Shown here in pieces: positions 7,384 to 52,182 of a DNA stretch of 64,000 nt. The position numbers and the translations under genes are program-made. How positions within the stretch are numbered: position 1 is the first letter of the stretch; the number at the start of each line of letters is the position of its first letter. The notes under the pieces are model-generated. The model saw only the letters and a program-made list of their open reading frames with translations. It made no database searches and was not told the DNA's origin. Source of the DNA: Bacteroidaceae bacterium (GTDB lineage: Bacteria; Bacteroidota; Bacteroidia; Bacteroidales; Bacteroidaceae); contig JAFYQK010000016.1 of NCBI GenBank assembly GCA_017547165.1, positions 1-64,000 on the forward strand, written 5' to 3'.

Positions 7384-7390
7384 TTTCAAA

Positions 7391-9609: not shown

Positions 9610-9630
9610 GTTATGTCTTTTACTATTATA

Positions 9631-10326: not shown

Positions 10327-10339
10327 TTCTTATTATTTA

Positions 10340-12935: not shown

Positions 12936-14297
12936 CTATTTGTTCCAGATTCCGGTTGCTGTTTGGTTGATAATTTTCTTTAGTTGTATCCTGCAAATAA
13001 TAAATTGCGCGAAAAATGCTATTGATGGAACTATAACAATTCCTACAAGCCCCCATTGGCGGCAGCTATATATCATAACTGGGATTGCAAAAACAGCAAT
13101 GACAATATAGGTTATTAACTGAATTCTTACTTTTCCAATTCCATTTAGTTGGTGCATATAAATTGCTCCCATTATTTTGCAAAATGTAAAGAACGCAATG
13201 GCAATCGATATTTGTATTGATGTATTGACATTATCTCCCAACCATACTGAAAATACAAAAGGGGAAATTATAGTCAACAATGTAAGTGCAGATAAACTGA
13301 AGAGTCCCATTTTTTCAAGTTTAACAGAACACCTTTTCATCCATCCATAATCCTTATGTGTGTAAGCATCTGTATATGCAGACCAAATAGGCGATAGTAC
13401 AATCATTACAACCATTTCAATAATATGAAAAAGTTTATATGTCACATTGTATATGGTTACCGATTCCGGACCAAGTTCTCTTGATATTATGATGTTTGTG
13501 AATTGAAAGATAAAAAGAAGACACAACATTATAAGAAAGAACTGTCCTCCCATTCCTACTATTTTCTTTGTAAGCGAAAAATCAATCAAACTAAAAGATG
13601 GTGCGTACTTCTTATATTTTCCTTTACAAAATACAATTATTGAAACAATTATCGTAAGTAAACATGGTATACCTGAAAAAGCTATTGCAAGATATTCAAG
13701 ACTTCCTTTTGTTGTGTATGTAAGGATTATGATTGCAATTAACGAAAGGAAATTTCCTATTGTTTTTATTGCTGTTGATGCAGCTGGGCGTTGACTAGCA
13801 ATAAGCATTGTTGAAAAGACTTCTGCAACAATGTTAATGCAAAAGAATAATATGAGTATACGGAATACAGATTTTAGTTCAATATTCAAACCGGGATCAA
13901 CATTTAATACACTACTCCAATTAATATAATTGTTTGCTATTGACGTTATAATCATTAATATTGTAAATATTATTGTCAAAACAGCATATGTTGTACTGAC
14001 GTACTTACGAGCCAAAATGTGTTCGTTCTTCGCCACAGCCTCTGCAAACCTATTTCTGAAGCCGTGTGCAAATCCAAAATCAAAATATGATAACCAAGCT
14101 ATGATTGAACTTAATGTCAACCATATTCCATAACGTTCTGAGTTTATGTAATTGATAGTAGCCGGCACAACCATTAATGAAATAACAATGCTAATTACTC
14201 TTAGCAAAGATGATGCCATTATATTCTTTTTAATAAGTACTGTTCTTTCGCTACCGGAAAAAAGTATCTTGATAATGTTTTGAACCTTCTGTTTCAT
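12936..14297 (-). CDS. Wzx-like flippase (polysaccharide transporter family)
   Basis: A 453-residue protein with about twelve to fourteen transmembrane helices and no signal peptide. It has an N-terminal first helix with VISIVISLMVVPATINYI and the following YGIWLTLSSI, the pattern of MOP-superfamily Wzx/RfbX proteins. It would move the undecaprenyl-linked repeat unit to the periplasm. It is the first enzyme gene of the locus after the UpxY gene, separated by about 0.9 kb of gene-free DNA. Base composition is extreme: the 60 bases from 13921 contain only 10 G or C. Confidence 0.85.
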   Translation of the reverse strand: MKQKVQNIIKILFSGSERTVLIKKNIMASSLLRVISIVISLMVVPATINYINSERYGIWLTLSSIIAWLSYFDFGFAHGFRNRFAEAVAKNEHILARKYVSTTYAVLTIIFTILMIITSIANNYINWSSVLNVDPGLNIELKSVFRILILFFCINIVAEVFSTMLIASQRPAASTAIKTIGNFLSLIAIIILTYTTKGSLEYLAIAFSGIPCLLTIIVSIIVFCKGKYKKYAPSFSLIDFSLTKKIVGMGGQFFLIMLCLLFIFQFTNIIISRELGPESVTIYNVTYKLFHIIEMVVMIVLSPIWSAYTDAYTHKDYGWMKRCSVKLEKMGLFSLSALTLLTIISPFVFSVWLGDNVNTSIQISIAIAFFTFCKIMGAIYMHQLNGIGKVRIQLITYIVIAVFAIPVMIYSCRQWGLVGIVIVPSIAFFAQFIICRIQLKKIINQTATGIWNK

Positions 14298-15191: not shown

Positions 15192-15758
15192 TCAGTCGAG
15201 GACTTGGATGTAGCCGTCGGTGATGTGGGTGAGCATGACACCGATGATGCCTTCCACCATGATGACAACCTCTTTCTTGCGTCTTGTGGCTACCTTTACG
15301 AAGATGCCTTCAACGCCATCGAATGCTCCGCCAATGATTTTTACTCTGGTGCCTTTCTGCAGGTTGACTTCATCGGGGGAGAGGTAACGGAGTTTATCGT
15401 TGTAGGTGTTGCAGACAGTGATGAATTGTTGCATCTGTGGCTCGGGTACAGTGATGGGGATGTTCCTGCCTTCAACTGTCTTGATGAGGTAGTGAAGGTA
15501 GTTGAGCCGGGATTTGACATCTTGGATATGTCTGCGTGTGGTGTTGATAAAGATGAGGTTGTTGATGGCGGAGACAAGCTTGCGAGTGGTTGTCTGTTTC
15601 TTGTCCTTCTGGATTTCGTATCGCATGGGGACGAAGCATTCGATGTTCTCTTGCTCGAGGAAAGTTTTTGCCTTTAGTTCCCGACCATAGGTGGCACTCA
15701 TGGCAAACCATTGCTTTTCTTGCTGGCTTGCTTGCGGGGTGTTTTCTTGTTCCAACAT
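15192..15758 (-). CDS. UpxY-family transcription antiterminator (NusG paralog)
   Basis: A 188-residue protein. Residues 16-115 form a NusG N-terminal-like domain (QWFAMSATYGRELKAKTFL, then IECFVPMRYEIQ), and residues 134-165 a KOW motif (LQKGTRVKIIGGAFDGVEGI). This is the arrangement of UpxY proteins, which in Bacteroides are encoded first in each capsule operon and let RNA polymerase read through the long operon by acting on its own 5' leader. Here a strong promoter lies about 180 bases upstream and all downstream genes are polysaccharide genes on the same strand, which supports the same role. Confidence 0.88.
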   Translation of the reverse strand: MLEQENTPQASQQEKQWFAMSATYGRELKAKTFLEQENIECFVPMRYEIQKDKKQTTTRKLVSAINNLIFINTTRRHIQDVKSRLNYLHYLIKTVEGRNIPITVPEPQMQQFITVCNTYNDKLRYLSPDEVNLQKGTRVKIIGGAFDGVEGIFVKVATRRKKEVVIMVEGIIGVMLTHITDGYIQVLD

Positions 15759-16903: not shown

Positions 16904-16934
16904 TTTGTTATGAATTGTATTTTTTGTAACTTTG
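16904..16934 (+). promoter_or_regulatory. Bacteroidetes-type promoter of the aryl-polyene-like cluster
   Basis: TTTG (16904-16907) and TAACTTTG (16927-16934) are separated by 19 bases, an excellent match to the Bacteroidetes consensus. Transcription would begin near 16941, about 50 bases before the GNAT-like gene. Gaps between the following genes are short up to 29146, so this could serve the whole cluster. Confidence 0.75.
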
Positions 16935-16988
16935 TAACCGATTTAAATCATGCTCACATTAATGTGATGATACTAGGCAAGTTTGCAG

Positions 16989-18128
16989 ATGAATACTATG
17001 AGTGATATCATTGTTAAGAAAGTTGAAACAAAGCATGATCTGGATGAATTCGTTAGATTTCCTCTTGATTTGTATGCCGGCAATGAGCAGTTTGTACCAG
17101 AGATGGCAAGCGATGTTCGTAACAGTTTTAATCCTGATAAAAATCATGGTTTGTCGTTCACAGAAGTACAGGCTTTTATTGCTGTAGATGGCAAGAAGAC
17201 AGTGGGGCGTATCGTAGGCATCATCAATAAGAGGGCAAACACAAAGTGGAACACTCAGGTTGTTCGTTTTGGATATATTGATTTTATTGATGACCTGAGA
17301 GTTAGCAAGGCATTATTGGATACGGTTGTTGAGTGGGGACGCGAGAGAGGTATGACTGAGATTCAAGGTCCCCTCGGCATAACTGACTTCGATAAGGAGG
17401 GTATGCTGGTGGAGGATTTTGATCGCGAAGGCTCGATGATTGATATCTATAACTATCCTTACTATCCGAAGCACATGGAGGCTCATGGGTATAGCAAGGT
17501 GGTTGACTGGGTTCAAATCCGTGTGGCAATACCAAAGGAGGTTCCTGCAAGATATGCCAGAGTAGCAAAGCTCAGTAAGGAAATGTATGGACTTACCGTT
17601 AAGAAAGTATCGCTGAAGGAGGCTTATAACGGAGAGGGGCACCGATTGTTTGAACTGATGAATGTGGCTTATGCTCCGTTGTTTGGTTACAGTTCGTTTA
17701 CGCCTCGACAGATAGATTTCTTCTTGAAAACGTACTTGCCGTTGGCAGATATGGACCTTATTCCTATTGTTGAAAACGAAAAGGGAGAGATGGTGGCTGC
17801 TGCTGTAACAATGGCGAGTATGTCACAAGCTTTAAGGAAGTCGAAAGGAAAATTGCTGCCCTTTGGTTGGTGGCATATGCTGAAGGCTTTGAAACTGAAG
17901 CACGAAGAAACTGCCAATCTGATGCTTATTGCAGTGAGGCCTGATATGCAGGGATTGGGAGTGAATGCGTTGATATTCGACGACCTTATTCCTGTTTATA
18001 ACAGAAAGGGATACAAATATGCTGAAACGGGTCCGCAGCTTGAGGATAATGTGAAGGAACTTTCGCAGTGGAAGCCGCTTAATCCCGAGGTGATAAAGAG
18101 AAGAAGGTGCTTCTCAAAGAAATTGTAA
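16989..18128 (+). CDS. GNAT-fold N-acyltransferase-like protein, first gene of the lipid/pigment cluster
   Basis: A protein of about 379 residues with ATG starts at 16989 and 16998. Two stretches resemble GNAT folds: residues about 55-130 (VGRIVGIINKRAN, then EIQGPLGITDFDKEG) and the C-terminal third (NLMLIAVRPDMQGLGVNALIFDDL), the latter with the V-x-P-x-x-Q/R-G-x-G acyl-CoA loop. Similar long GNAT-like proteins are found in Bacteroidetes next to lipid and aryl-polyene genes, but their acceptor is not known. An N- or O-acyl transfer from the cluster's ACP is possible, as no other acyltransferase is present. The spacing of 41 bases to the ketosynthase supports one operon. Confidence 0.75.
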   Translation: MNTMSDIIVKKVETKHDLDEFVRFPLDLYAGNEQFVPEMASDVRNSFNPDKNHGLSFTEVQAFIAVDGKKTVGRIVGIINKRANTKWNTQVVRFGYIDFIDDLRVSKALLDTVVEWGRERGMTEIQGPLGITDFDKEGMLVEDFDREGSMIDIYNYPYYPKHMEAHGYSKVVDWVQIRVAIPKEVPARYARVAKLSKEMYGLTVKKVSLKEAYNGEGHRLFELMNVAYAPLFGYSSFTPRQIDFFLKTYLPLADMDLIPIVENEKGEMVAAAVTMASMSQALRKSKGKLLPFGWWHMLKALKLKHEETANLMLIAVRPDMQGLGVNALIFDDLIPVYNRKGYKYAETGPQLEDNVKELSQWKPLNPEVIKRRRCFSKKL

Positions 18129-18169
18129 TTAAGATAAGAGAATAACAAATAAAATACATTTAAGATTTT

Positions 18170-19390
18170 ATGGAAAATAGAGTTGTAATCACAGGTATGG
18201 GCATTTGGTCTTGCTTAGGTCAAACACTTGACGAGGTTCGTCAGAGTCTTTACGACGGCAAGAGCGGAATCATCTTCTCTCAAGAGAGAAAGGATATGGG
18301 TTTCCGTAGCGGTTTGTGCGCTGATGTTCCCACTCCTGATTTGAAGAAATTGGTTAGCAGAACAATGCGCCAGTTTATGCCCGAAGAGGCACAGTATGCT
18401 TATATGGCAACTAAGAGTGCGTTGGAACATGCACGCCTTGATCAGGACTATATTGATTCTCACGAGGTTGGTATTATTTATGGCAATGATAGTGTTGCTG
18501 AGGCTACTATGGTGGCTTTGGATCGTTTCCGTGAGTTTAAGGAGACAAGTGCTTGCGGTAGCGGTGCTATCTTCCAGAGCATGAACAGTACCGTGACCAT
18601 GAACCTTGCATGCTTGTTCCGTTTGCGTGGCATTAACCTTACCAGCAGTGCGGCATGTGCAAGTTCTTCTTTGGCTATAGGTAACGCATACCTTCTTATC
18701 AAGAACGGTTTGTCGGATTGTATTATCACTGGTGGTGCTCAGGAGGCTAATATGTATTGTGTAGCAAGTTTCGACGGTATTCAGGCGTTCTCAACTCGTG
18801 AGGATGAACCCACCAAGGCTTGTCGTCCTTTCGATAAGAACCGTGATGGTCTGGTTCCTGGTGGTGGTGCAGCTACCATCATTCTCGAGAGCTACGAACA
18901 TGCAGTGAAGCGTGGTGCACCAATCCTTGCTGAGATTGTAGGTTGGGGCTTCAGTGGTAACGGTGACCATATCTCTACCCCCAACGTAGCAGGTCCTGCA
19001 CGTTCATTGGAGTTGGCACTTCGTAATGGTGGTATCAATCCCAACGAGATTGGTTACCTGAATGCACATGCTACAAGTACTCATGCGGGTGACGGTCGTG
19101 AGGCAATGGCAATCAAGCAGATTTTCGGTGACTATGCTATACCCGTGACATCAACCAAATCACAGACTGGTCATGAGATGTGGGCAGCTGGTGCTGCTGA
19201 GTGTGTATACAGCATGCTGATGATGAAGAACGACTTTATCGCTGGTAACATCAACTTTGAGGAGCCCGACGAGGAGACTGCATGTGTTAATGTCATTCCC
19301 GAGACTACAGAGAGACATTTTGATATGTTCCTGAGCAACAGCTTCGGTTTTGGCGGTACCAACAGCACCTTGATTGTGAAGAATCTGTAA
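18170..19390 (+). CDS. Beta-ketoacyl-ACP synthase (FabF/ApeO-like)
   Basis: A 406-residue thiolase-fold ketosynthase with the full catalytic set: Cys163 in SSAACASSSL, His300 in NAHATSTHAGD, Lys330 and His335 in STKSQTGHEMWAAG, and GFGGTNSTL near the end. It is therefore an active condensing enzyme and not a chain-length factor. It condenses malonyl-ACP with a growing acyl-ACP. The next gene is an ACP, and dehydratases and a ketoreductase follow, so it probably builds a polyene or fatty acyl chain. It is the only ketosynthase in the cluster, whereas characterised aryl-polyene systems have two or three. Confidence 0.9.
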   Translation: MENRVVITGMGIWSCLGQTLDEVRQSLYDGKSGIIFSQERKDMGFRSGLCADVPTPDLKKLVSRTMRQFMPEEAQYAYMATKSALEHARLDQDYIDSHEVGIIYGNDSVAEATMVALDRFREFKETSACGSGAIFQSMNSTVTMNLACLFRLRGINLTSSAACASSSLAIGNAYLLIKNGLSDCIITGGAQEANMYCVASFDGIQAFSTREDEPTKACRPFDKNRDGLVPGGGAATIILESYEHAVKRGAPILAEIVGWGFSGNGDHISTPNVAGPARSLELALRNGGINPNEIGYLNAHATSTHAGDGREAMAIKQIFGDYAIPVTSTKSQTGHEMWAAGAAECVYSMLMMKNDFIAGNINFEEPDEETACVNVIPETTERHFDMFLSNSFGFGGTNSTLIVKNL

Positions 19391-19449
19391 ACAGAATTAT
19401 ATATAGAAAACCCTAAATTTATTAACATTATAACCAAATTTTTTTGATT

Positions 19450-19689
19450 ATGACAAGAGAAGAAATCATTGAAAAGGTAATTGAGACCCTTTCTGAAGAG
19501 TTTGAGGTAGAGCAGGAGGTTATCACTCCCGATGCTGTTATCTACGACACATTGCAGTTGGATAGCTTGAGTCTGGTTGACCTTGTTGCTGTAGTACAGT
19601 ACACCTTCAAGGTTAAGATTCCTGTTGCTGACCTTCCAAGTGTAAAGACTTTCAACGACTTGTATGACTACATCGAGAGCCATCAGTAA
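19450..19689 (+). CDS. Acyl carrier protein
   Basis: A 79-residue acidic protein. LQLDSLSLVDLVAVVQ contains the phosphopantetheine attachment Ser39 in the D-S-L motif, with the usual helix II after it. The ATG at 19450 gives the normal N-terminus (MTREEIIEKV); an upstream TTG is less likely. It should carry the acyl chain for the neighbouring ketosynthase, dehydratases and ketoreductase. Its 3' end overlaps the next gene by 26 bases, so the two are translationally linked. Confidence 0.92.
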   Translation: MTREEIIEKVIETLSEEFEVEQEVITPDAVIYDTLQLDSLSLVDLVAVVQYTFKVKIPVADLPSVKTFNDLYDYIESHQ

Positions 19690-20098
19690 GATTGAAGAAC
19701 TTATACCCCAGCGCTCGCCCATCATGATGGTGGACGAGCTGCTGAAGGTAGAAGGTGATGAGTGCACATGCCAGTTGACCGTTAGAGAGGACAACTACTT
19801 CGTTGAGGGCGATGGCATGATGGCAGAGCCTGGTGTGATTGAGCACATTGCACAAAGTGCTTCGGCTTTTGCCGGTTATAAGGCTGTTGCTGAAGGTGCC
19901 ACAGAACCACCTGTTGGCTATATTGGCGAGGTGAAGAATTTCAGAATTTACCGTCGCCCAATGGTAGGTGATGTCCTTAGTACCGTTATCACTATGGGAG
20001 CAACAGTAGGTGGTGTTACCATCATAAGCGGTTGCACATATTGCAAGGACGAGTGTATTGCTGAAACCCAAATGAAAATCTTTGTTCGCGAAGATTAA
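19664..20098 (+). CDS. ApeP-like hotdog dehydratase subunit
   Basis: A 144-residue hotdog protein: SKIEELIPQRSPIMMVDELL at the N-terminus, then NYFVEGDGMMAEPGVIEHIAQ at residues 44-64. It aligns with FabZ around E-x-x-A-Q (Glu60), but the FabZ catalytic His of G-H-F-P-G is replaced (GDG at 49-51), as in the ApeP-type partner dehydratases of aryl-polyene pathways, which have EHxAQ. It probably acts together with the second dehydratase (20184). This is based on motifs; whether it is active alone is unclear. Confidence 0.75.
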   Translation: MTTSRAISKIEELIPQRSPIMMVDELLKVEGDECTCQLTVREDNYFVEGDGMMAEPGVIEHIAQSASAFAGYKAVAEGATEPPVGYIGEVKNFRIYRRPMVGDVLSTVITMGATVGGVTIISGCTYCKDECIAETQMKIFVRED

Positions 20099-20183
20099 GT
20101 GACGTGAATATAATAAGCTGTCTTTATTAAAACGGAGCAGATTATTTTTGAATGTCACTAACATTATACCTTATATATAATAT

Positions 20184-20555
20184 ATGTTGCTGGAAAATAA
20201 ATTTTACAAGGTCTTGTCCGTAAACCAAACAGATACTTTGCAGGCTGAATACAGGCTTGCCATATTGTCGGAGTGTGATGTTTATAACGGGCATTTTCCT
20301 GGTGACCCTGTTTGTCCCGGCGTCTGCAATATTGAGACAATAAAAGAATGTGCAATGTTGCTGACTGGCGAGGTGTTGCGATACAACACCATCAAGCAAT
20401 GCCGTCTGACAGCATTGGCGACTCCTACTGTTTGTCCTGAGGTTAAGGTGCAGTTGGCGTTGACCGCCACCGATGCTGGTTATAATATTCAGGCCACAAT
20501 TGCTGACGACAATCAGGTTTACATGATTTTAAAAGGTCTATTGGATAAGCAATGA
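20184..20555 (+). CDS. FabZ/ApeI-like 3-hydroxyacyl-ACP dehydratase
   Basis: A 123-residue hotdog protein with the classical FabZ motif GHFPGDPVCPGVCNIETIKE (residues 36-55): catalytic His37 and Glu51 are both there. It should dehydrate 3-hydroxyacyl-ACP to trans-2-enoyl-ACP. The length is shorter than FabZ (about 140-150). An ATGA overlap with the MMPL transporter shows tight coupling. With no enoyl reductase in the cluster, double bonds made here should remain, as in a polyene. Confidence 0.82.
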   Translation: MLLENKFYKVLSVNQTDTLQAEYRLAILSECDVYNGHFPGDPVCPGVCNIETIKECAMLLTGEVLRYNTIKQCRLTALATPTVCPEVKVQLALTATDAGYNIQATIADDNQVYMILKGLLDKQ

Positions 20556-23053
20556 CACGATTATTTCTGAAAATTTACGAATTCTTTAGTAAACATCGGG
20601 CAGTTATGTGGTGCTCGATGCTTATAATTTTTGTTTTTTGCGGTTATTTTACCACACAGATTCATTTAGAGGAAGACTTGAACAAACTGATGCCATCGTC
20701 TAAGAATGAGGATGGTACGACAAAGTTGGCATTCTCTAACTTGAGGATAGTTGACAAGACTTTCCTTTTGTTTGAGTCGAAAGAAGGTTCCACCCCCGAG
20801 AATTTGATAAGCTGTTGCGATGAGTTTGCAGACTCGTTGTTTGCTTATAACGAATCATTGGATAGTAATAAGGTTTTCTCTGATATTTTTTATTGTTTGG
20901 ACGAGAACCTGATGCCTGACGCCATTGATTATCTTAGTCAGCATATTCCATCTTATATAGATACATCATACTATTCTGCTTTCGACACCTTGTTGACAGA
21001 AGAACATGTTCTTGCCCAGATGCATAAGAATGCGGAGGATTTCGACAGTGATTTTGGAAGCATGTTCCCCGAACTTATAGAAATGGACCCTATTGGCATG
21101 CGTAATATCATCGCTTCGTCGATGTCGTCGTTGTTGAAGGGCGGAACAGGTGGAATTGCCACAATAGAAAACCATTTCTTCGTGCCCGATTCTTCGGTAT
21201 GCATGGCTTTCATCACACCACAGTTTTCTTCGACCAACACTGGTCAGGGTGGAAAAATGTTTGAGAGGATAAACAAGCAGATTGTGGATTTTGCCGTTAA
21301 ATATCCCGACGTACATATTTGTTATCACGGTACACCTGCATATGGGTTCTATAACTCAAGAACCATTAAGGATGATTTGGTGGGTACTGTGGCATGGAGT
21401 GAAATCCTTGTTCTCTTGCTTCTGTTCTTATGTATGCGCAACTGGAACACCATACCATTGCTGTTCCTGCCTGTTGCCTTTGGTACATTGTTCGGACTTG
21501 CGACAATGTATTTCATAAAGGGACAGTTCTCGCTGATGGCACTTGGCATTGGTGCGATAATACTTGGTGTGGCGATGAGTTATGTTCTGCACATATTGGT
21601 TCACTACAAGTATGTCAACGACCCTGTACAGGTGTTGCGCGATGAGACAAAGCCTGTGCTTTTAGGATGTGTCACCACCATTGGCTCGTTTATCGGTCTG
21701 CTGTTCGTGAAGACAGATCTTCTGCAGGACTTCGGTCTTTTTGCTGCCTTGGCCATTGTTGGTACAACAGTGTTCTCTCTTGTATATCTTCCTCATCTTA
21801 TGAAGATGGAGAAGAACAAGGTAAACAAGAAGGCTTTTTCTTTGATAGACAAGGTGAATACCTACAAGTTCCACGACAAGAAATGGTTATTGGCATTGAT
21901 AGGTGTGATTATTACCGTTTGTGTAGGATTCTATTTTGCCAAAGGAACCAATTTTGATGCCAACATGAACAATTTGGGTTATGTTGACAAGGAGGTCGGT
22001 TATGCAAGCAAATTGTATCGTGACAAGACTGCCACCGGTTACAGTTCAACATATTTTGCTTCGCAGGGTAAGACCGTTGAGGAGGCATTGCATAACTTTG
22101 ATCTTTTAGACAGCAAGCTGGACTCTCTTAAGCAGCTTGGTGTCGTAAAGCAATATACTCCAATAAACCGTTTCTTCATCAATCTTGACAAGCAGCAGGA
22201 AAGAATAGACGCATGGTATGCCTATTGGACAGAAGAACGTCAGCAGAAGGTTCGTGACCTTGTTGCTGCTACCGCTCCCAAGGCAGGACTTAACGCTGAG
22301 GGTTTCGAGGCTTTCTTCGATATGGTAAATGCGGAGTATGAGCCAGCGCCTTTGTATGAGGCAGGAATAGTGCCTGATGGTTATCTGTCGACATTGATAG
22401 AGAAGACATGGGGTGGTGAGTACTTATGCTTTGCCAATGTTCAATATGAGGGTGACAAGGATTTCAGTGAGAACAGTAATTTCATGAGAATATGCAATAC
22501 CGTCTCTGCAGAACCTACCTTGTTGGTTTTGGATACCACATATTACACACAGGATTCGCTGAATGTTCTGAACAACGACTTCAATGTGCTGCAGTGGATG
22601 AGCATGGCATTTGTGTTTTTTGTTTTGCTGGTAAGTTTCCACTTTAACCTGAAATATACCATTCTTGGGTTTGCTCCAATTCTGTTGAGCTGGCTCATTG
22701 TTTTGGGTTCTATGGCAATATTCAACGTACAATTCAATCTCATTAACATCATCATCTCAACCTTCATCTTCGGTGTGGGTGTTGACTACAGCATTTTTGT
22801 TATGAATGGCTTGATTGCTGATAAGGAAAACGGAGGAGATAACAACTTGATGTTACGTTATCACAAGACGGCCATAGCTTTTAGTGCCGTAATACTGATT
22901 GTTACTGTTGCAAGTATGCTGTTTGCCAATCATCCTGCTATAAAGAGCGTCGGCTTCGCTACCCTTATAGGTATGATAAGTGCTGTTGTTCTAAGCTATG
23001 TCTGCCAACCGGCACTCTTTAAGTTGATGAAGAATAAGCGTACCGAAAAATAA
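20552..23053 (+). CDS. MMPL/RND-family exporter
   Basis: An 833-residue protein. Helix 1 lies at about residues 17-37, a group of helices at about 275-430, another at about 448-468, and a second group at about 680-825, with large periplasmic segments between. This is the duplicated RND layout of MMPL proteins. ILGVAMSYVLHILVHY and FGVGVDYSIFVMNGL carry the mid-membrane motif that in this family holds proton-relay Asp residues; the first copy has Ser instead of Asp. In aryl-polyene clusters a homologous exporter moves the lipid-linked product across the inner membrane, which fits the neighbouring LolA-like gene. Confidence 0.88.
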   Translation: MTRLFLKIYEFFSKHRAVMWCSMLIIFVFCGYFTTQIHLEEDLNKLMPSSKNEDGTTKLAFSNLRIVDKTFLLFESKEGSTPENLISCCDEFADSLFAYNESLDSNKVFSDIFYCLDENLMPDAIDYLSQHIPSYIDTSYYSAFDTLLTEEHVLAQMHKNAEDFDSDFGSMFPELIEMDPIGMRNIIASSMSSLLKGGTGGIATIENHFFVPDSSVCMAFITPQFSSTNTGQGGKMFERINKQIVDFAVKYPDVHICYHGTPAYGFYNSRTIKDDLVGTVAWSEILVLLLLFLCMRNWNTIPLLFLPVAFGTLFGLATMYFIKGQFSLMALGIGAIILGVAMSYVLHILVHYKYVNDPVQVLRDETKPVLLGCVTTIGSFIGLLFVKTDLLQDFGLFAALAIVGTTVFSLVYLPHLMKMEKNKVNKKAFSLIDKVNTYKFHDKKWLLALIGVIITVCVGFYFAKGTNFDANMNNLGYVDKEVGYASKLYRDKTATGYSSTYFASQGKTVEEALHNFDLLDSKLDSLKQLGVVKQYTPINRFFINLDKQQERIDAWYAYWTEERQQKVRDLVAATAPKAGLNAEGFEAFFDMVNAEYEPAPLYEAGIVPDGYLSTLIEKTWGGEYLCFANVQYEGDKDFSENSNFMRICNTVSAEPTLLVLDTTYYTQDSLNVLNNDFNVLQWMSMAFVFFVLLVSFHFNLKYTILGFAPILLSWLIVLGSMAIFNVQFNLINIIISTFIFGVGVDYSIFVMNGLIADKENGGDNNLMLRYHKTAIAFSAVILIVTVASMLFANHPAIKSVGFATLIGMISAVVLSYVCQPALFKLMKNKRTEK

Positions 23054-23057
23054 TAAG

Positions 23058-24476
23058 ATGTATCAGGCTGATATCATCATAATAGGAAGTGGATTAGGAG
23101 GGCTTGAGGTAGCCCTTGCTATGGCTCAGGAAGGCAAGAAGGTTCTTGTTTTGGAACGTCAGGTCCAGCCTGGCGGATGCATGCAGAGCTACCGAAGGGG
23201 AGCGATGCATCTGGATACCGGTTTGCATTATGTTGGCGGTCTTTCAGAAAGCAGTGCCCTTTATGAGTCGTTCAATAAATATGGCCTGATGTCCCTTCCA
23301 TGGAAGCAGATGGATACGGAATGTTTTGAGGAAATACATATTGCCGGAAAATCATATTGTTGGCCACAGGGTATTGATAACTTCATTAATGCTATGAAGA
23401 CCTATTTCCCCCACGAAACAGATGGTCTTGACAAATATGCAAAGTTGTTGTATTGCACCGATGAGTTGTGGATGCAACAGACAAATGCCTGGGACTATCT
23501 GAATTCCATAATATCTGACAAAACGTTGATTCAGGTTCTTACTGCTCCAGCCCTGTGCAAGATGGAGTTGCGTAAGGAATCGCTGCCATTGTTCACTTTT
23601 GTACATGGAACAGCACCATTTATTGAGAACAGTTGGCGCTTGGCAACAGACGGCAATGCCATTGTTGAGCGCCTTGTGGAGCAGATAAGAGAACTTGGTG
23701 GAGAGGTACTGACCGGCAAGGAAGTCGTTTCGCTTGAAGAGGAGGGTGGTATCGTTACAAAGGCACATTGCTTGGACGGCAGCGAATATTCGGCAAAATG
23801 GTTTGTGAGTAATGCTCACCCTGCTGTTACATGCAGTCTTGTCAAGGATAGCAAGGTGATGAAGAACATCTTCCGCCGTCGTATGCAGTCACAACCCAAC
23901 ACACATGGCATGTTCACACTGCATCTTCAATTGCATAACAATGCCTTGGAATACTTCAATCACAACAAGATTGTCCTGCCAGAGGAAGAGTGCTGGGATG
24001 TTGCTGTAGGCAGCGATTTAAAGGTTAAGGCCATAATGATAAGTGCGCGCATACCTGAGGATGGTAGCAAGGTAACAAATGTAGATATACTGACACCAAT
24101 GCTGTGGGATTGTGTCTCGGAATATACTGATTCGACATTGTTCCACCGCCCTGAGTTGTATATGAAATTAAAAGAAGAAATTGCTGCTCAATGTCTTGAT
24201 ATTGCCGAGTCGGTAATACCTGATCTACGCTCTATGGTTGTTAAGTCGTGGAGCAGCAGTCCGCTTACCTACAGGGATTATAACCTGACTCCCGAAGGCA
24301 GTGCTTTTGGTTTCAGAAAGGATTTCTCAAATCCGATGTCAACGATTATATCCCCTAAAACGCAGATTCCCAATCTGCTGATGACAGGCCAGAGTCTTAT
24401 GTTGCATGGACTGCATGGAGTTACCATGACAGCGGCCTACACCTGCAATGAGATAAACAAGAACACCATAAACTAA
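23058..24476 (+). CDS. CrtI-like NAD(P)/FAD-dependent oxidoreductase
   Basis: A 472-residue flavoprotein of the phytoene-desaturase/carotenoid-isomerase class. The Rossmann dinucleotide motif IIIIGSGLGGLE lies at residues 6-17, followed by LVLERQVQPGGCMQSY. The C-terminal NLLMTGQSLMLHGLHGVTM matches the FAD-closing motif of this family. It could desaturate, isomerise or reduce a polyene or an aromatic precursor. CrtI-like proteins are not part of the E. coli aryl-polyene cluster but occur in Bacteroidetes pigment clusters. The substrate is unknown. Confidence 0.85.
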   Translation: MYQADIIIIGSGLGGLEVALAMAQEGKKVLVLERQVQPGGCMQSYRRGAMHLDTGLHYVGGLSESSALYESFNKYGLMSLPWKQMDTECFEEIHIAGKSYCWPQGIDNFINAMKTYFPHETDGLDKYAKLLYCTDELWMQQTNAWDYLNSIISDKTLIQVLTAPALCKMELRKESLPLFTFVHGTAPFIENSWRLATDGNAIVERLVEQIRELGGEVLTGKEVVSLEEEGGIVTKAHCLDGSEYSAKWFVSNAHPAVTCSLVKDSKVMKNIFRRRMQSQPNTHGMFTLHLQLHNNALEYFNHNKIVLPEEECWDVAVGSDLKVKAIMISARIPEDGSKVTNVDILTPMLWDCVSEYTDSTLFHRPELYMKLKEEIAAQCLDIAESVIPDLRSMVVKSWSSSPLTYRDYNLTPEGSAFGFRKDFSNPMSTIISPKTQIPNLLMTGQSLMLHGLHGVTMTAAYTCNEINKNTIN

Positions 24477-24493
24477 ATTATAAACTACGAACG

Positions 24494-27190
24494 ATGACAA
24501 AACGTAATATTTTATTTCTGCTTTTTTTCTTCGTGCTTATACCGGTGTATGCACAATATATCACCGGTAAGGTAGTTGCTGATGATGACGGAATGCCCCT
24601 TGTAGGTGCCACCGTATGGTTCGAGGAGAATCCCGCCGCCAAGGTCAGGGTAGGTGAGGACGGACAATACCGTATACGTTTCCGTAAAGGCACTCTTGTG
24701 TTCCACTGCTTCGGTTTCAAAGACTATAAGTCGGAAGTTACCCGTAACCGTCAGGTCAATGTACGCTTGAAACCATCAGCCCTTGATATGCAGGAGGTTA
24801 CAATCGAGGTGAAGAAGAAAAAGTACACACGCAAGAACAATCCTGCCGTTGAACTGATGGAGAAGGTAATTGCCGCCAAGAAGTTCAGGGACATGCGTTC
24901 TAATGACTTTGTATCATACAAGAAGTATGCCCGCACGATGCTCGCTCTTAATGAGTTTTCGGCTGATTCGCTTGATAATGACGAGAACCTCAAGAAAAAG
25001 AAGTCATTCCTTGCAAACTATGCCGAGGTATGTCCTGAGACAGGAAAGACCATTGTTCCAATCTCTATTGAGGAAAAGACATCGACTGAGATATACCGTA
25101 AGAGCGATGACAAGAGCAAGAGTCTTGTTCATGGACACCATGCAGAAAGTTTGCTTGATGTATTGGCTGCCGGTGAGTTCCTTGAGACTAAATTTAAGGA
25201 CAACCTGAAGGATGTGGATATTTACAAGGATCAGATGGTTTTGCTGGAGCATAACTTTATCAGTCCCATCGGTGGCACTCCTGCCATAAGATTCTATCAT
25301 TACGCTATAGAAGACACCGTCGACCTTGATGGTGAGAAGTGTGTCAAGGTTGTGTTTTCGCCAGGCAATCCACAGGATTTTGGTTTCAGCGGACATCTGT
25401 ATATTCTTGCAGACAGCACCTATAGGGTAAGGCGTGCCAAGTTTGGTGTGCCTGTAGCCAGTGGCATAAATTTTGTTGAGACAATGAATGTTGACCAGGA
25501 GTATGTTTCGCTACCCACTGGTGAGCAGATTTGCAGCAAAAACCGTATGATGATGCAATTGAAACTGACGTCGTATCTGAATAAGATTTTTGTTGACTAT
25601 AATGTAAATTACAGTGATTGGACTTTTGAACCGATTGCAGAGACAGAATTTGATTTTCTCGGAGATGAGCGCTATGACAAGAATGCCAAGTTGCGTGACA
25701 ACGAGTATTGGGTGAATTCACGTCCTGACACTCTTTCGTATGCTCAGGCTAATGTTGCAGAGATGAAGCGCCGCTTTGTAGACCGTCCTGCAGTGAAAGC
25801 GATGATTTACGGTCTGCGCATCATCCTGGACAACTACCTTGAGACAAGCACCAATCCTAATAAGCCCAGTAAGGTTATCATCGGTCCTTTCTTCTCTATG
25901 TTGGGTCATAACAACACTGAGGGATTCCATGTTCGTGTAGGTGCTCAGACAACAGGCGCTTTCAATAAACACTGGTTTATGTCGGGTTGGCTGAAGTATG
26001 GTTTCAAGGACCGTCGTCCAAAGGGATTCTTTGAGTTGACCTATTCTTTCAACGAGAAAGAAAAGGAGGTTATCGCTTATCCGATACGTACTCTCTCCAT
26101 CTCTTATGCCAATGATATCCAGAGTCCTGCAGACAAATATCTGCAATTTGACAAGGATAATGCCTTCATGGCTATTGCGTGGGCAAGCAATCATTTCCAT
26201 TCTTACTACGAGCGCTTTAAGTTCAAATACGACTGGGAGTTTAACAATGGTTTGAGACTTAATGCTGCATTCGTGAGAGAAAGCAACAAAGGAGCTGGTA
26301 ACCTGTATTTCAATACCGTTAAGGAATGGGACGATGCAAAGAGCATTCAGAAGGATGTGAATGCCAATATGAATACCAATGTTCAGTTGGACGAGATTAT
26401 TAAATCCAACAAGATCGTCTACACTGAGTTCCAACTCGGTGCAGAGTATCAGCCTGGTGTAAAGTATCTTAACACCAAGACCAAGCGTTTCCTAGCTAAC
26501 CGTGAGGCTCCCATTTATGGCATACAGCATACTGTAGGTATAAAAGGTTTCTTGGGTTGTGACTATAACTACAATTATTCTGAATTCACCCTTAAAAAAC
26601 GCTTCTGGTTGAATTCGTGGGGTAGTATTGACGCCTTCCATTGTGTTGGCATACAGTGGAATACCGTTCCATTCCAGTTGTTGAGTTTGCCACGTGCCAA
26701 CTTGAGCTATGTGAGAAGTGACAACACATTCTCTTTGGTAAGGAATCTTGAGTTCCTGAACGACAGAACCTTCACTATAATGTATCGTTGGGATTTAGGT
26801 GGCAAATTGTTTAACCGTATACCTCTTATGAAAAAACTTAAGTGGCGTGAGGCAATCGGTTTCAACATGATGTGGGGATATTTGACCGACAAGAACAATC
26901 CAAATCGTTTCAATGACATAAGCAGGTATCCTACTTTGGAGAGCAAGATGGCTGATCCAGGTTATGACTACCTGTATAATATGCCAGGAGAATGGGTCAG
27001 CAACAATGGAAATGTCAGCTATGATCCTATTGTGAAGCATATGAACAGCTGGAAACCTTATGTGGAGGTGAATGTGGGTATTCACAACATCTGGAAGTTC
27101 TTCAGTGTAGACTACTATCACCGCTTGACCTACAACACTCCTGGTACACAGACATGGGGCTTCCGTTTCGCCTTTGAGGCCTCGTTCTAA
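24494..27190 (+). CDS. DUF5686 outer-membrane protein with carboxypeptidase-like domain
   Basis: An 898-residue exported protein: signal peptide at residues 1-20 (hydrophobic then VYAQ), then a carboxypeptidase-D regulatory-like domain (ITGKVVADDDGMPLVGATVW) to about residue 100. The rest matches DUF5686-type proteins and ends in FRFAFEASF, a beta-barrel C-terminus with terminal Phe. Many aromatic-rich alternating segments support a barrel. Its role is not known; in this cluster it may place or anchor the final product in the outer membrane. It starts 17 bases after the oxidoreductase stops. Confidence 0.82.
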   Translation: MTKRNILFLLFFFVLIPVYAQYITGKVVADDDGMPLVGATVWFEENPAAKVRVGEDGQYRIRFRKGTLVFHCFGFKDYKSEVTRNRQVNVRLKPSALDMQEVTIEVKKKKYTRKNNPAVELMEKVIAAKKFRDMRSNDFVSYKKYARTMLALNEFSADSLDNDENLKKKKSFLANYAEVCPETGKTIVPISIEEKTSTEIYRKSDDKSKSLVHGHHAESLLDVLAAGEFLETKFKDNLKDVDIYKDQMVLLEHNFISPIGGTPAIRFYHYAIEDTVDLDGEKCVKVVFSPGNPQDFGFSGHLYILADSTYRVRRAKFGVPVASGINFVETMNVDQEYVSLPTGEQICSKNRMMMQLKLTSYLNKIFVDYNVNYSDWTFEPIAETEFDFLGDERYDKNAKLRDNEYWVNSRPDTLSYAQANVAEMKRRFVDRPAVKAMIYGLRIILDNYLETSTNPNKPSKVIIGPFFSMLGHNNTEGFHVRVGAQTTGAFNKHWFMSGWLKYGFKDRRPKGFFELTYSFNEKEKEVIAYPIRTLSISYANDIQSPADKYLQFDKDNAFMAIAWASNHFHSYYERFKFKYDWEFNNGLRLNAAFVRESNKGAGNLYFNTVKEWDDAKSIQKDVNANMNTNVQLDEIIKSNKIVYTEFQLGAEYQPGVKYLNTKTKRFLANREAPIYGIQHTVGIKGFLGCDYNYNYSEFTLKKRFWLNSWGSIDAFHCVGIQWNTVPFQLLSLPRANLSYVRSDNTFSLVRNLEFLNDRTFTIMYRWDLGGKLFNRIPLMKKLKWREAIGFNMMWGYLTDKNNPNRFNDISRYPTLESKMADPGYDYLYNMPGEWVSNNGNVSYDPIVKHMNSWKPYVEVNVGIHNIWKFFSVDYYHRLTYNTPGTQTWGFRFAFEASF

Positions 27191-27234
27191 TAACAGAATT
27201 ATACAGACTTTTATATAAATAGAATATACAAATT

Positions 27235-27969
27235 ATGAAGTATGCTTTAGTTACTGGCGGCAGTCGTGGTATCGGTCGTGCCGTATGTGTAAAGTTGGCC
27301 CAAATGGGTTATAATGTACTTATCAACTATGCTGGAAATGTTGCTGCGGCAGAAGAGACATTGCGCTTGGTGCGTGAGGCCGGCACTGACGGCGAGCTAA
27401 TGAAGTTTGACGTTAGCAATGCCGAAGAGACACGCAATATGATTGAAACATGGCAGCGAGCACATGAGGATGCTGATGAGTATATCGAGATTCTTGTGAA
27501 CAACGCTGGTATCCGTAAGGATAATATCATGGGTTTGATGCCTGCTGAGGACTGGATGAGTGTTTTAGGTGTCAGTCTTAACGGTTTCTACAATGTGACC
27601 CAGCCCTTGCTTATGCCAATGCAGTTCCATAAGTTTGGTCGTATCATTAATATGGCAAGCGTTAGCGGTATCATGGGCATGCAGGGACAGACTAACTACT
27701 CAGCAGCAAAGGGTGGACTTATCGCTGCCACAAAGGCTCTTGCAAAAGAGGTGGCAAAGAAGAATGTTACATGTAATGCCATTGCCCCTGGATTCATAAA
27801 GACCGACATGGTAGAGGGTTTAGACGAGGCTGCGCTGAAGAAAACCATTCCTGCCAACCGTTTTGGAACTCCTGAAGAAGTTGCCGAATGTGTCGCTTTC
27901 CTGTGCAGCAAGCAAGCTGGTTACATCACAGGTAATGTGATTTCCATTAACGGCGGACTTTATACCTAA
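27235..27969 (+). CDS. fabG: 3-oxoacyl-ACP reductase (FabG/ApeQ-like)
   Basis: A 244-residue short-chain dehydrogenase. The NADP-binding glycine motif TGGSRGIGRAV lies at residues 7-17, NNAG at 89-92 and the catalytic set Ser142-Tyr155-Lys159 in NMASVSGIMGMQGQTNYSAAK (shown in part). The ending GNVISINGGL is typical of FabG. It reduces 3-ketoacyl-ACP with NADPH. The position inside the ketosynthase/ACP cluster suggests it is dedicated to that pathway and not the housekeeping FabG. Confidence 0.9.
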   Translation: MKYALVTGGSRGIGRAVCVKLAQMGYNVLINYAGNVAAAEETLRLVREAGTDGELMKFDVSNAEETRNMIETWQRAHEDADEYIEILVNNAGIRKDNIMGLMPAEDWMSVLGVSLNGFYNVTQPLLMPMQFHKFGRIINMASVSGIMGMQGQTNYSAAKGGLIAATKALAKEVAKKNVTCNAIAPGFIKTDMVEGLDEAALKKTIPANRFGTPEEVAECVAFLCSKQAGYITGNVISINGGLYT

Positions 27970-28045
27970 ATTTTAAACACCATATTATATAATGAGGGGA
28001 GGATGTGCCTTCCCTCATATTAAATATCATTATTTTGTTTAAAGT

Positions 28046-28627
28046 ATGAAAAGATTATCTTTATTTATTATAGCATTGTTTATGTGCATTGTTTCCTTTG
28101 CACAGAATGCGGATTTTGCCAAGGCTGTTTCCAAATTCAAAACAGCCAAGACTGTTAAGGCTGTCGCAGTAAGAGTTGATCATAAGGCAGCTGTAGCTAA
28201 TGATGAGAAATTGACAGGAACATTGACAATTGCGAGTCCCGACAAAATGAATATCTGTGTTGCTGAGGGTAAGGAGCAACTTGATATGAACGGTCAGGAT
28301 TTCACTATGGTTATGCGTGGACGAGAGCATAAGACCAACAGCAGCAAGAATTCACAGTTTGTCGCTTTTCAGGCGGTACTTACAGCAATAATAAATGGTG
28401 ATCCTGCGCGTTTGAACAATGTTGGTGGCATTGAGATGAAGAAAAGTGGTGATATTCTCACTATATCAATGGACCCCTCTTATGGTATGGCAAAGAAGAA
28501 GAGAATGATGTTTTCTTCTTTTGTGATAACTCTCGATTGCAAGAAGGGAGAGATTAAGACATTGCGCATGAACGGACGTGGAAGCAACTATACAGAATAT
28601 TCGTTCAGTAACTTCGTCTTCAAATAG
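28046..28627 (+). CDS. LolA-like outer-membrane lipoprotein/lipid carrier
   Basis: A 193-residue protein with a signal peptide (residues 1-19, ending VSFAQ). The rest has alternating beta strands and a TLTIASPDKMNI segment like the half-barrel of LolA-fold periplasmic carriers. Genes for a LolA-like carrier beside an MMPL exporter are a hallmark of aryl-polyene clusters, where they probably carry the hydrophobic product through the periplasm. The similarity is by fold and context only. It starts 76 bases after fabG. Confidence 0.78.
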   Translation: MKRLSLFIIALFMCIVSFAQNADFAKAVSKFKTAKTVKAVAVRVDHKAAVANDEKLTGTLTIASPDKMNICVAEGKEQLDMNGQDFTMVMRGREHKTNSSKNSQFVAFQAVLTAIINGDPARLNNVGGIEMKKSGDILTISMDPSYGMAKKKRMMFSSFVITLDCKKGEIKTLRMNGRGSNYTEYSFSNFVFK

Positions 28628-28723
28628 GACGAAGTTTTTCTTTCTTGCCACTTTGTGATATGAGAAAATAACCAGTATCAGTTTTAGAATATATTTTGAT
28701 TTACCATTTTATATAAATACTTT

Positions 28724-29146
28724 ATGGAAATGACAGATATATGCCGTGTGCCTGTGAAATTCAGTGAGATAGACTCTATGCGTATAGTGTGGCATGGCAA
28801 TTATGTCGTATATTTTGAGGATGGTAGGGAGTCGTTCGGTCGCCATTATCCTGGTATGGGTTATGATATCATGCAGGAAACTGGCATATATGCTCCTATC
28901 TATGACGTGCATCTCAGACATTACGCCTCGCTACAGATGGGGGATGTTGCTGTGATACACACTACATTCGTTCCCAAACGTGGAGCACGTCTTGACTATA
29001 AATACAAAATCTATCGTGAGAGAGATAATCAACTGTGCTGTGAAGGAGAGACGACACAACTCTTTATTGATACAAATGGGGAACTTCTGCTTGAACTTCC
29101 TGATTTTGTGCAGGAGTGGAAAAAGAAATGGCTATCTGCCAGATAA
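28724..29146 (+). CDS. YbgC-type acyl-CoA/ACP thioesterase (4HBT)
   Basis: A 140-residue hotdog thioesterase. The N-terminal VPVKFSEIDSMRIVWHGNYVVYFEDGR resembles the 4HBT motif (Y/F-x-D-x-D-x-x-G-V-V-x-x-x-x-Y-x-x-x-F/E), with Glu/Asp and Ser where FabM/YbgC have Asp-x-x-Gly. It probably releases the acyl chain from the ACP or hydrolyses stray acyl-ACP. It is the last gene of the cluster; 132 bases of AT-rich DNA follow before a convergent gene. Confidence 0.85.
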   Translation: MEMTDICRVPVKFSEIDSMRIVWHGNYVVYFEDGRESFGRHYPGMGYDIMQETGIYAPIYDVHLRHYASLQMGDVAVIHTTFVPKRGARLDYKYKIYRERDNQLCCEGETTQLFIDTNGELLLELPDFVQEWKKKWLSAR

Positions 29147-50991: not shown

Positions 50992-52182
50992 TTATTCCGC
51001 AATAATTCCTTGTTCTACGAAGACCTTCTTGAGGCTCTTTACTGCGCGGTCGACCTGCTCATGTGTGTGATTGGCCATTAGTGCTACGCGAACTAGTGTG
51101 TCGGTGGGGGCGCATGCTGGTGGAATAACAGGGTTGATGAAGACGCCTTCTTCAAATGCACGTGCTGTTACGATGAAAGTCTTTTCGAGGTCACGAACGT
51201 AAAGGGGAATAATGGGACTCTCGGTATCGCCAATCTCAAAGCCTTCTTCCTTAAAGCGCTTAAGAGCATAATGTGTTACATCCCAAAGTGCTTCAAGACG
51301 CTCGGGCTCTGATTTCAAAATGCGAAGTGCCTCGCGTGCTGATGCTGTTGCAGCTGGTGTGCAACTTGCACTGAAGATATAGGTACGGGCAGTGTGACGC
51401 AGGTAGTTGATAATTGTCTTGTCAGCTGCAATGAATCCGCCAATACTTGCAAGACTCTTAGAGAATGTGCCCATAATGAGGTCAACCTCGTGAGTTAGAC
51501 CGAAATGATCGCAAACACCGCGACCATCACGTCCGAATACACCAATGCCGTGAGCCTCGTCAACCATAATAGCTGCATTGTACTTATGCTTTAGTTCTAC
51601 TATCTCGGGGAGTTTGCAAAGGTCTCCTTCCATTGAGAATACACCATCAACAACGATAAGCTTGATGCTGTCGGGGTTACAACGCTTGAGAACACGCTCA
51701 AGGTCTTCCATGTCGTTGTGTTTGTAACGTAATTGGTTTGCAAAGCTTAAGCGACGGCCATCTACAATAGATGCGTGGTCGCGATCGTCGCAGATGATGT
51801 AATCGTCTTTTCCCAATAATTGAGGGATTACACCGCTATTTACCGTGAAACCAGTGGCGAAGACCAAAGCCTCGTCCATGCCAATGAATTCTGCCAACTC
51901 TTTCTCAAGTTCAACATGTATGTCAAGTGTGCCATTTAGGAAACGGCTGCCTGCGCATCCGCTACCATATTGACGCATAGCTTCTACGCCTGCCTCAATA
52001 ACGCGATCATCGCCAGTAAGGCCTGTGTATGCATTGCTACCAAACATCAATACATTATGTCCACCCATAGACACCTCGGTGCCTTGTTTGCCTTCAATCT
52101 CGCGGAAATAAGGATAGATACCTTTTGCCTTAATCTCTTCTGGCAGAGTGTATTTTGCCAGTTTGTCTTGTAACAATCCCAT
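50992..52182 (-). CDS. spt: Serine palmitoyltransferase-like alpha-oxoamine synthase
   Basis: A 396-residue PLP enzyme. The PLP-binding Lys242 is in GTFSKSLASIGGF; His136 (CDDRDHAS) and DEAHGIGVFG (208-217) complete the site. It belongs with KBL, BioF and SPT; the MGLLQDKLAKYTLPEEIKAKGIYPYF N-terminus (shown in part as LPEEIKAKGIYPYF) resembles Bacteroides SPT, which makes 3-ketodihydrosphingosine from serine and acyl-CoA. KBL is the main alternative. A -7-like TACCTTTG lies on the minus strand at 52236-52229. A lipid-kinase gene is divergent to it. Confidence 0.82.
   Translation of the reverse strand: MGLLQDKLAKYTLPEEIKAKGIYPYFREIEGKQGTEVSMGGHNVLMFGSNAYTGLTGDDRVIEAGVEAMRQYGSGCAGSRFLNGTLDIHVELEKELAEFIGMDEALVFATGFTVNSGVIPQLLGKDDYIICDDRDHASIVDGRRLSFANQLRYKHNDMEDLERVLKRCNPDSIKLIVVDGVFSMEGDLCKLPEIVELKHKYNAAIMVDEAHGIGVFGRDGRGVCDHFGLTHEVDLIMGTFSKSLASIGGFIAADKTIINYLRHTARTYIFSASCTPAATASAREALRILKSEPERLEALWDVTHYALKRFKEEGFEIGDTESPIIPLYVRDLEKTFIVTARAFEEGVFINPVIPPACAPTDTLVRVALMANHTHEQVDRAVKSLKKVFVEQGIIAE

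What the first reader, a model, noticed from the sequence alone, without database searches (positions are those of the whole stretch)
16904..29146. Minimal aryl-polyene-like type II synthase cluster with one ketosynthase and no starter-unit genes
Seen: one active ketosynthase (Cys163, His300, His335), one ACP, two hotdog dehydratases, ketoreductase, thioesterase, MMPL exporter, LolA-like carrier, DUF5686 protein and CrtI-like oxidoreductase, all on one strand behind one promoter. Known: aryl-polyene (Ape) clusters also encode a chain-length-factor-like ketosynthase, often a third one, an ammonia-lyase or equivalent, an AMP ligase and an acyltransferase. None is here. Inference: either the missing genes lie elsewhere, or this is a different pathway making a non-aryl polyene or branched lipid, perhaps with the GNAT-like protein transferring the product.
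Basis: partly seen in the sequence, partly recalled or inferred. Interest (0 to 1): 0.78.

Follow-up and report, generated by a model that had tools for sequence, protein, structure and literature searches.

The report
One-ketosynthase cluster with ceramide-synthase-like gene
A set of gut-bacterium genes that looks like a cut-down pigment pathway more probably makes a special fatty chain, attaches it to a sphingolipid-type base with a duplicated ceramide-synthase-like enzyme, and ships the lipid to the outer membrane; the product itself has not been seen.

Summary
In detail: eleven co-directed genes (16998-29146) with one intact ketosynthase, and no second ketosynthase/chain-length factor, ammonia-lyase or AMP ligase in the cluster. 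It is conserved, not a local loss: 18 of 151 family genomes carry this ketosynthase type; of 80 named loci, 0 show an ammonia-lyase and 1 a further ketosynthase. The ketosynthase groups with one enzyme of three-ketosynthase, flexirubin-like clusters; the other two are gone. The new point is the "GNAT": an end-to-end homologue of E. coli YghO, the N-acyltransferase of bacterial ceramide synthesis. Its family sits directly behind spt in 68 of 101 Bacteroidota genomes where both were listed, or beside sulfonolipid genes. The cluster copies tested form one clade within the family's other copies. In other Bacteroidales a PlsC acyltransferase often fills that slot. Best reading: a dedicated type II synthase builds an unusual, probably unsaturated chain that is N-linked to a long-chain base and exported. 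Acceptor and chain chemistry are inferred; some relatives lack ketoreductase and dehydratase genes, which weakens "polyene".

The parts
16904..16934 (+). putative Bacteroidota-type promoter (-33/-7 like)
   Evidence: pattern match, 6 found vs 4.2 expected in window; supported by position only
16998..18128 (+). GNAT-like N-acyltransferase of the YghO/bacterial ceramide synthase family, cluster paralogue
   Evidence: 27% identity over 380 aligned positions to E. coli YghO, E=2e-37; clade of 20 cluster copies 97/96
18170..19390 (+). FabB-like ketosynthase, Cys163-His300-His335
19444..19689 (+). acyl carrier protein (DSL motif)
   Evidence: PF00550 41.6 bits; motif read
19664..20098 (+). hotdog protein HD1, FabZ-like without the catalytic His (ApeP-like half by motif)
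20184..20555 (+). hotdog protein HD2 with GHFPG motif (ApeI-like half)
20552..23053 (+). MMPL/RND-type lipid exporter
   Evidence: PF03176 49.4 bits; ApeM match E=1.7e-18
23058..24476 (+). CrtI/CrtD/carotenoid-isomerase-like FAD oxidoreductase (these NCBIfam models all below cut-off)
24494..27190 (+). DUF5686 protein with CarboxypepD_reg_2 domain (outer-membrane barrel inferred)
   Evidence: PF18939 156 bits
27235..27969 (+). SDR ketoreductase, over the cut-off of NCBIfam FlxB; 47% to E. coli ApeQ
   Evidence: 386.8 bits vs cut-off 340
28046..28627 (+). LolA-like carrier (LolA and LolA2_flexi models both below cut-off; no ApeL match)
28724..29146 (+). YbgC/ApeK-like thioesterase
50992..52182 (-). 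serine palmitoyltransferase (source of the proposed acceptor; not part of the operon)
   Evidence: NCBIfam SerpalmtaseCFB 664.7 bits vs cut-off 640; PDB 3A2B 489 bits

Best explanation
The operon is a dedicated acyl-chain-plus-transfer pathway for an outer-membrane N-acyl lipid, probably a sphingolipid. A FabB-like ketosynthase elongates an acyl primer (most likely from ordinary fatty acid synthesis) on the cluster's own ACP. The FlxB-like ketoreductase and the HD1/HD2 dehydratase introduce double bonds that are not reduced, since no enoyl reductase is encoded in the cluster, and the CrtI-like flavoenzyme isomerises, desaturates or saturates the chain. The YghO-type N-acyltransferase then moves the chain from ACP to the amine of a long-chain base made by SPT. 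MMPL, LolA-like and DUF5686 proteins carry the lipid to the outer membrane. Shown: gene content, homologies, conservation, phylogeny, family link of the acyltransferase to spt. Inferred: primer, degree of unsaturation, acceptor, order of steps, export target.
For: GNAT homologous end to end to E. coli YghO, whose gene in CFT073 lies beside acyl-AMP ligase, epimerase/dehydratase, ACP and spt; PMC9386255 passages list yghO/CC_1154 as the N-acyltransferase gene for dihydroceramide. Phylum survey: YghO-like gene directly downstream of spt, same strand, in 68 of 101 genomes where both hits were listed, 198 examined (the own genome, not adjacent, is the 101st). The window copy's own clade B includes a member in spt-GNAT-epimerase order (L222), and members beside cysteate synthase CapA (L228, L229) with a SulA homologue shown in L228. 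SPT is in the genome. All 20 cluster copies put in a tree (window plus 19 of 35 named loci) form one clade inside the family's other copies (97/96). Before the KS lies this GNAT in 35 of 80 loci and a PlsC in 24 of 80, none with both; two same-genus loci, L052 and L053, have both (PlsC by Pfam in L052): an acyltransferase slot. ACP and CrtI-like are in 26 of 26 long GNAT-type loci; MMPL and LolA together in 17, never one alone.
Against: The cluster is not near spt in any of the 109 other loci searched; the 22 kb distance in the window looks like chance. The window GNAT is in clade B, not in the clade of YghO and the six spt-adjacent genes tested, and clade B also occurs in genomes whose best SPT-like hit is weak (e.g. 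G284, 1.9e-71). In the three alpha-oxoamine synthase neighbourhoods (L228, L229, L237) the GNAT is convergent, not co-directional. KR was found in only 15 of 26, HD1 in 18 and HD2 in 8 long GNAT-type loci, so polyunsaturation is not secured. In 33 of the 101 genomes with both hits listed there is no adjacency among the listed rows. No structure could be predicted (server busy).
Confidence: 0.5

Rival explanations
1. It is a true aryl polyene/flexirubin pathway whose starter unit, ligase and elongation partner are supplied in trans from elsewhere in the genome.
For: KR scores over the FlxB cut-off; KR, KS, HD2, TE, MMPL and ACP each have an Ape counterpart; 11 AMP-binding hits elsewhere in the genome.
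Against: No PF00221 hit in the own genome, and in 1 of the 18 genomes with this KS type (G084, on another contig); 14 of those 18 have only two KS hits at E<=1e-10; no DarB candidate beyond one KAS III protein; no ammonia-lyase found in 80 loci. The own genome is only 84.5% complete.
Confidence: 0.12
2. Same synthase, but the GNAT acylates a different amine (amino-acid lipid, aminosugar or protein), so the product is not a sphingolipid.
For: The cluster copy has diverged to 47% from the genome's other copy; the cluster is not linked to spt; in other Bacteroidales a PlsC-type acyltransferase often holds the slot, so acceptors can change.
Against: 26 residues are invariant across 25 rows from E. 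coli YghO to cluster members, four of them within the motif by which rows were picked; contexts found for the family are spt and sulfonolipid loci, besides stand-alone copies, several near parE-like genes.
Confidence: 0.25
3. The chain is a short beta-keto, beta-hydroxy or singly unsaturated acyl group, made by one or few condensations, not a polyene.
For: The KS is of the FabB/ApeR kind; ApeR is described as the initiation KS and ApeO-ApeC as the elongating pair (PMC8253772 passages), and no such pair is here. L159 and L132 show no KR or dehydratase gene in the locus.
Against: A carotenoid-desaturase-like enzyme is present in 26 of 26 long loci, which suggests a conjugated substrate.
Confidence: 0.35
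4. A decaying relic of a flexirubin-like cluster.
For: The KS nests with one KS of larger clusters; one relative, G140/L147, has a stop in the GNAT.
Against: Catalytic Cys-His-His kept in 18 of 18 one-KS rows; cluster genes recur in many loci. No selection test was run.
Confidence: 0.03

Closest known systems
Flexirubin polyene cluster (Chitinophaga pinensis flxA-Y, PMC3992019, passages)
   Same: FlxB-type KR (NCBIfam cut-off met); KS, dehydratases, LolA-like protein and exporter in a type II synthase operon of Bacteroidota
   Different: no TAL, coumarate ligase or DAR genes found; one KS instead of several; YghO-type N-acyltransferase added. No flx protein was compared other than through the NCBIfam models
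E. coli CFT073 aryl polyene cluster (ape)
   Same: BLAST counterparts of ApeR, ApeQ, ApeI, ApeK, ApeM, ApeE; ApeP/ApeI-like split of the dehydratase motif
   Different: no match to ApeC, ApeH, ApeD, ApeJ, ApeB, ApeG, nor to ApeP, ApeL, ApeF, ApeN at the cut-offs used; ApeO only as a weaker match to the same KS
Bacterial ceramide synthase (bCerS/Aca: CC_1154, YghO)
   Same: end-to-end homology; a dedicated ACP in sphingolipid synthesis has a precedent in AcpR (PMC9386255, title, start of abstract and passages)
   Different: clade B, second copy, in an operon with its own KS, not with spt
PKS-derived sphingolipids of Pseudomonas fluorescens MYb115 (SgaAB, PMC12134224, passages)
   Same: polyketide synthase serving sphingolipid synthesis
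   Different: monomodular PKS plus alpha-oxoamine synthase make the base; here a type II synthase would make the N-acyl chain

Membership tests
Aryl polyene (APE) cluster | KS-chain length factor pair (ApeO-ApeC) | tested here: not met
   no ApeC match in the cluster; one KS in cluster, two KS hits in genome; tree
Aryl polyene (APE) cluster | aryl starter supply and activation (ammonia-lyase or equivalent, AMP ligase) | tested here: not met
   no PF00221 in genome; no ApeH match in window; AMP-binding proteins elsewhere leave a trans-acting ligase open
Aryl polyene (APE) cluster | ApeQ-like KR | tested here: met
   47% to ApeQ
Aryl polyene (APE) cluster | ApeI/ApeP-like dehydratase pair | tested here: inconclusive
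   HD2 matches ApeI, HD1 has no BLAST match to ApeP; motif split agrees
Aryl polyene (APE) cluster | aryl polyenoic product | not testable with these tools
   needs chemistry
Flexirubin cluster | FlxB ketoreductase | tested here: met
   386.8 bits, cut-off 340
Flexirubin cluster | tyrosine ammonia-lyase FlxA | tested here: not met
   no PF00221 hit in the 84.5% complete genome
Flexirubin cluster | DarA/DarB dialkylresorcinol genes | tested here: inconclusive
   one ACP_syn_III_C protein in an 84.5% complete genome; DarA not sought
YghO/bacterial ceramide synthase family | full-length homology to YghO | tested here: met
   27% over 380 aligned positions, E=2e-37
YghO/bacterial ceramide synthase family | linkage of the gene to spt | tested here: not met
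   no SPT near the cluster in 109 other loci; the wider family is linked, 68 of 101
YghO/bacterial ceramide synthase family | N-acylation of (keto)sphinganine | not testable with these tools
   needs assay
FabB (KAS I) | NCBIfam equivalog cut-off | tested here: not met
   371.4 bits vs 630

The most novel reading that the evidence does not exclude
Rumen and gut Prevotella and relatives make an undescribed class of outer-membrane ceramides whose N-acyl chain is a conjugated polyene built by a one-ketosynthase type II polyketide synthase, after a single capture of a duplicated ceramide-synthase gene by a flexirubin-derived operon.
Probability: 0.28. Interest if true: 0.87.

Novelty: new variant of a known kind. 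Interest (0 to 1): 0.66.

Why it matters
Sphingolipids of Bacteroidota are said to modulate the host immune response (passages of PMC11087976). A dedicated, exported N-acyl lipid with its own chain-building synthase would be a new lipid class in rumen and gut bacteria. It would also show how a pigment-type pathway can be rewired into lipid synthesis by swapping the starter and transfer modules. Independently, the coupling of YghO-like genes with spt across the phylum, and their place beside sulfonolipid genes, gives a testable candidate for the N-acyltransferase step in Bacteroidota.

Tried and rejected
Local loss of Ape genes: rejected, relatives lack them too. PlsC as a missing partner in the window: the L052/L053 PlsC has no match in the own genome at E<=0.001. 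SPT proximity in the window as evidence: dropped, no other searched locus repeats it. A PF03706 membrane protein as stand-in for MMPL (suggested by L054): not supported, its relatives were found in 3 of 26 long loci, all of which have MMPL. A plain GNAT acetyltransferase: the Pfam hit is below cut-off and the PDB search gives nothing credible. Ketosynthase pocket residues compared with FabB, FabF and ApeR gave no clear chain-length signal. The first GNAT tree mis-oriented minus-strand loci; the second dropped 7 of 29 loci for want of a motif word; one search replaces both, though its non-cluster rows of the family come. Structure prediction of the GNAT never started (server busy). Paper search for sphingolipid + Prevotella + biosynthetic gene cluster + acyl carrier protein: 0 papers; the listing for polyene + ceramide + Bacteroidetes + ketosynthase (10 of 32 papers listed, titles and abstract starts) showed nothing on this cluster. 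Stankeviciute et al. is not held.
Full report
Observation. The window is contig 15 of a 2.26 Mb, 26-contig assembly, 84.5% complete. In that genome the KS query finds itself and one other KS, FabF-like in the tree; there is no PF00221 ammonia-lyase, one KAS-III-type protein and 11 AMP-binding hits on other contigs, two of them in one 2,434-residue frame.

Conserved, not a local loss. Among 151 genomes of the family, 18 (own included) have a KS 64-100% identical to the window's; 14 of these 18 have exactly two KS hits at E<=1e-10, G050 has three, G088 four, G038 and G118 five (the extra hits of G050 and G088 were not examined). One of the 18 (G084) has a PF00221 hit, on another contig. A second set of genomes has a KS only 52-60% identical plus further KS. 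In the 12 fetched loci of that set (L069-L079, L081) the cluster has three KS and is flexirubin-like by gene content; an ammonia-lyase lies beside it in two (G032, G037). G038 and G118 hold both kinds on different contigs, and there an AMP-binding ligase lies within about 20 kb of the three-KS cluster, and none was found on the contig of the one-KS cluster.

Origin of the KS. In a 60-row tree the window KS falls in an 18-row one-KS clade (100/98) inside a 30-row group (100/100) with the KS that in most three-KS loci follows the FlxB-like ketoreductase; that group is next to E. coli FabB (100/92). By position this KS corresponds to FlxC, but no FlxC sequence was compared. The other two KS of the large clusters fall elsewhere, one set with ApeO, on long branches. 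The best PDB matches are FabB. Against E. coli Ape proteins the KS is nearest to ApeR (35%, whole length); KR matches ApeQ (47%), HD2 ApeI, the thioesterase ApeK, MMPL ApeM and ACP ApeE. No match was found to ApeC, ApeH, ApeD, ApeJ, ApeB or ApeG, nor to ApeP, ApeL, ApeF or ApeN. ApeR is described as the initiation KS and ApeO/ApeC as the elongating pair (PMC8253772, passages). So the kept KS is of the initiation or FabB kind, and the elongating pair is gone.

The hotdogs. As I read the alignment, HD1 lacks the catalytic His of FabZ and keeps the Glu region, and HD2 keeps GHFPG or a close variant; the same split shows in the other aligned one-KS and three-KS loci and between E. coli ApeP and ApeI. 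HD1 and HD2 each match, weakly (E about 0.01), a different chain of PDB 6QSR; E. coli ApeP matches its chain B strongly. That 6QSR is an ApeI-ApeP heterodimer is my reading. I take HD1 and HD2 as one heteromeric dehydratase; that is inference.

The GNAT. It aligns end to end with E. coli YghO (27%, E=2e-37). In CFT073 yghO lies next to fatty acyl-AMP ligase, epimerase/dehydratase, ACP and spt, and PMC9386255 (passages) lists yghO and CC_1154 as the N-acyltransferase gene required for dihydroceramide. The own genome has a second copy (47%) beside a parE-like gene (gene read by eye). In the family sample 147 of 151 genomes have at least one copy and 148 of 151 an Spt-like hit, which at that cut-off may include other alpha-oxoamine synthases. 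In a phylum sample of 198 genomes, 189 have a YghO-like hit. From the listed rows, a YghO-like and a strong SPT-like hit were both placed in 101 genomes, the own included; in 68 the YghO-like gene lies directly downstream of spt on the same strand, median gap 72 bp (both lists were cut by the tool). In a 23-row tree the family splits into clade A (YghO and six spt-adjacent genes, partly picked for adjacency) and clade B, which holds the window's gene. Clade B members include one in spt-GNAT-epimerase order (L222; SPT 673.8 bits, cut-off 640) and genes convergent with an alpha-oxoamine synthase in L228, L229 and L237. In L228 and L229 a CapA cysteate synthase lies on the far side of that synthase (650.3 bits, cut-off 600); the L228 synthase is a homologue of cysteate-C-fatty acyltransferase (PDB 28EH, 706 bits), while those of L229 and L237 were not searched against the PDB. 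So the family is tied to N-acylation of long-chain bases, sphingoid and probably capnoid. Twenty cluster copies (window plus 19 of the 35 named GNAT-type loci) form one clade (97/96) among the other copies of the family; a stand-alone second copy of G125 is its nearest neighbour. SPT itself is encoded at 50992-52182 (664.7 bits, cut-off 640). None of 109 other loci searched has SPT near the cluster, so I give the proximity no weight.

An acyltransferase slot. GNAT types have KS identities of 74% and more; PlsC types are mostly 65-69%, in Bacteroidales, Paludibacteraceae, Tannerella and other records. Not every one of the 80 is this cluster: several of the 'neither' loci show little beyond a KS and KR. 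In the same-genus loci L052 and L053 both acyltransferases are present; the PlsC has no match in the own genome. Of the 80, one (L182) has extra KS and none a match to the G032 ammonia-lyase; five have AMP-ligase-like stretches, two of them GNAT-type. That ligase search also found nothing in the 12 three-KS stretches, where in the two cases looked at the ligase lies beyond the stretch, so it only speaks for about 10 kb around the KS.

Variable parts. In the 26 GNAT-type loci (of 35) with at least 9.5 kb downstream, ACP and CrtI-like are in 26, DUF5686 18, HD1 18, MMPL 17, LolA-like 17 (always together with MMPL), KR 15, HD2 8, thioesterase 8 (similarity search, so diverged hotdogs may be missed). 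ORF lists show in L159 only GNAT, KS, ACP, CrtI-like and DUF5686, and in L132 only GNAT, KS, ACP, MMPL, CrtI-like and LolA-like. The core is thus KS, ACP, N-acyltransferase and CrtI-like enzyme. This favours an N-acylated product and is a result against a firm polyene claim, since KR and dehydratase may have to come from fatty acid synthesis.

Mechanism. Shown: gene content, conservation, phylogeny, family link of the GNAT to spt and its place beside sulfonolipid genes. Inferred: acyl primer from fatty acid synthesis; partly unreduced chain on the dedicated ACP; chain modification by the CrtI-like enzyme; N-transfer to a sphingoid base; export by MMPL, LolA-like and DUF5686 proteins. A dedicated ACP in bacterial sphingolipid synthesis has a precedent (PMC9386255).

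Verdict. Not filed as aryl polyene or flexirubin: defining features were tested and not met. It works like a reduced flexirubin-type synthase with a ceramide-synthase-type transfer enzyme: a new variant of a known kind, with an unknown product.

Noticed in passing
L228, L229, L237: YghO-like N-acyltransferase genes convergent with alpha-oxoamine synthase genes (SulA homologue shown in L228; CapA in L228 and L229): a candidate for the sulfonolipid N-acylation step.
   Followed up: partly
window 50992-52182: Serine palmitoyltransferase on the - strand, 22 kb from the cluster; not repeated near other clusters.
   Followed up: yes
   Followed up: no
GNAT-type loci among L132-L170: MMPL and LolA-like genes occur together in 17 of 26 long loci and never singly.
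   Followed up: partly
L054:8377-9438: PF03706 (LPG synthase TM region) gene beside the DUF5686 gene in a cluster without MMPL; relatives were found in 3 of 26 long loci, all with MMPL, so replacement is not supported.
   Followed up: partly
window 12936-14297 and 15192-15758: Flippase-like and NusG/UpxY-like ORFs upstream on the - strand, read by eye only; the ORFs from 181 to 12928 were not translated.
   Followed up: no
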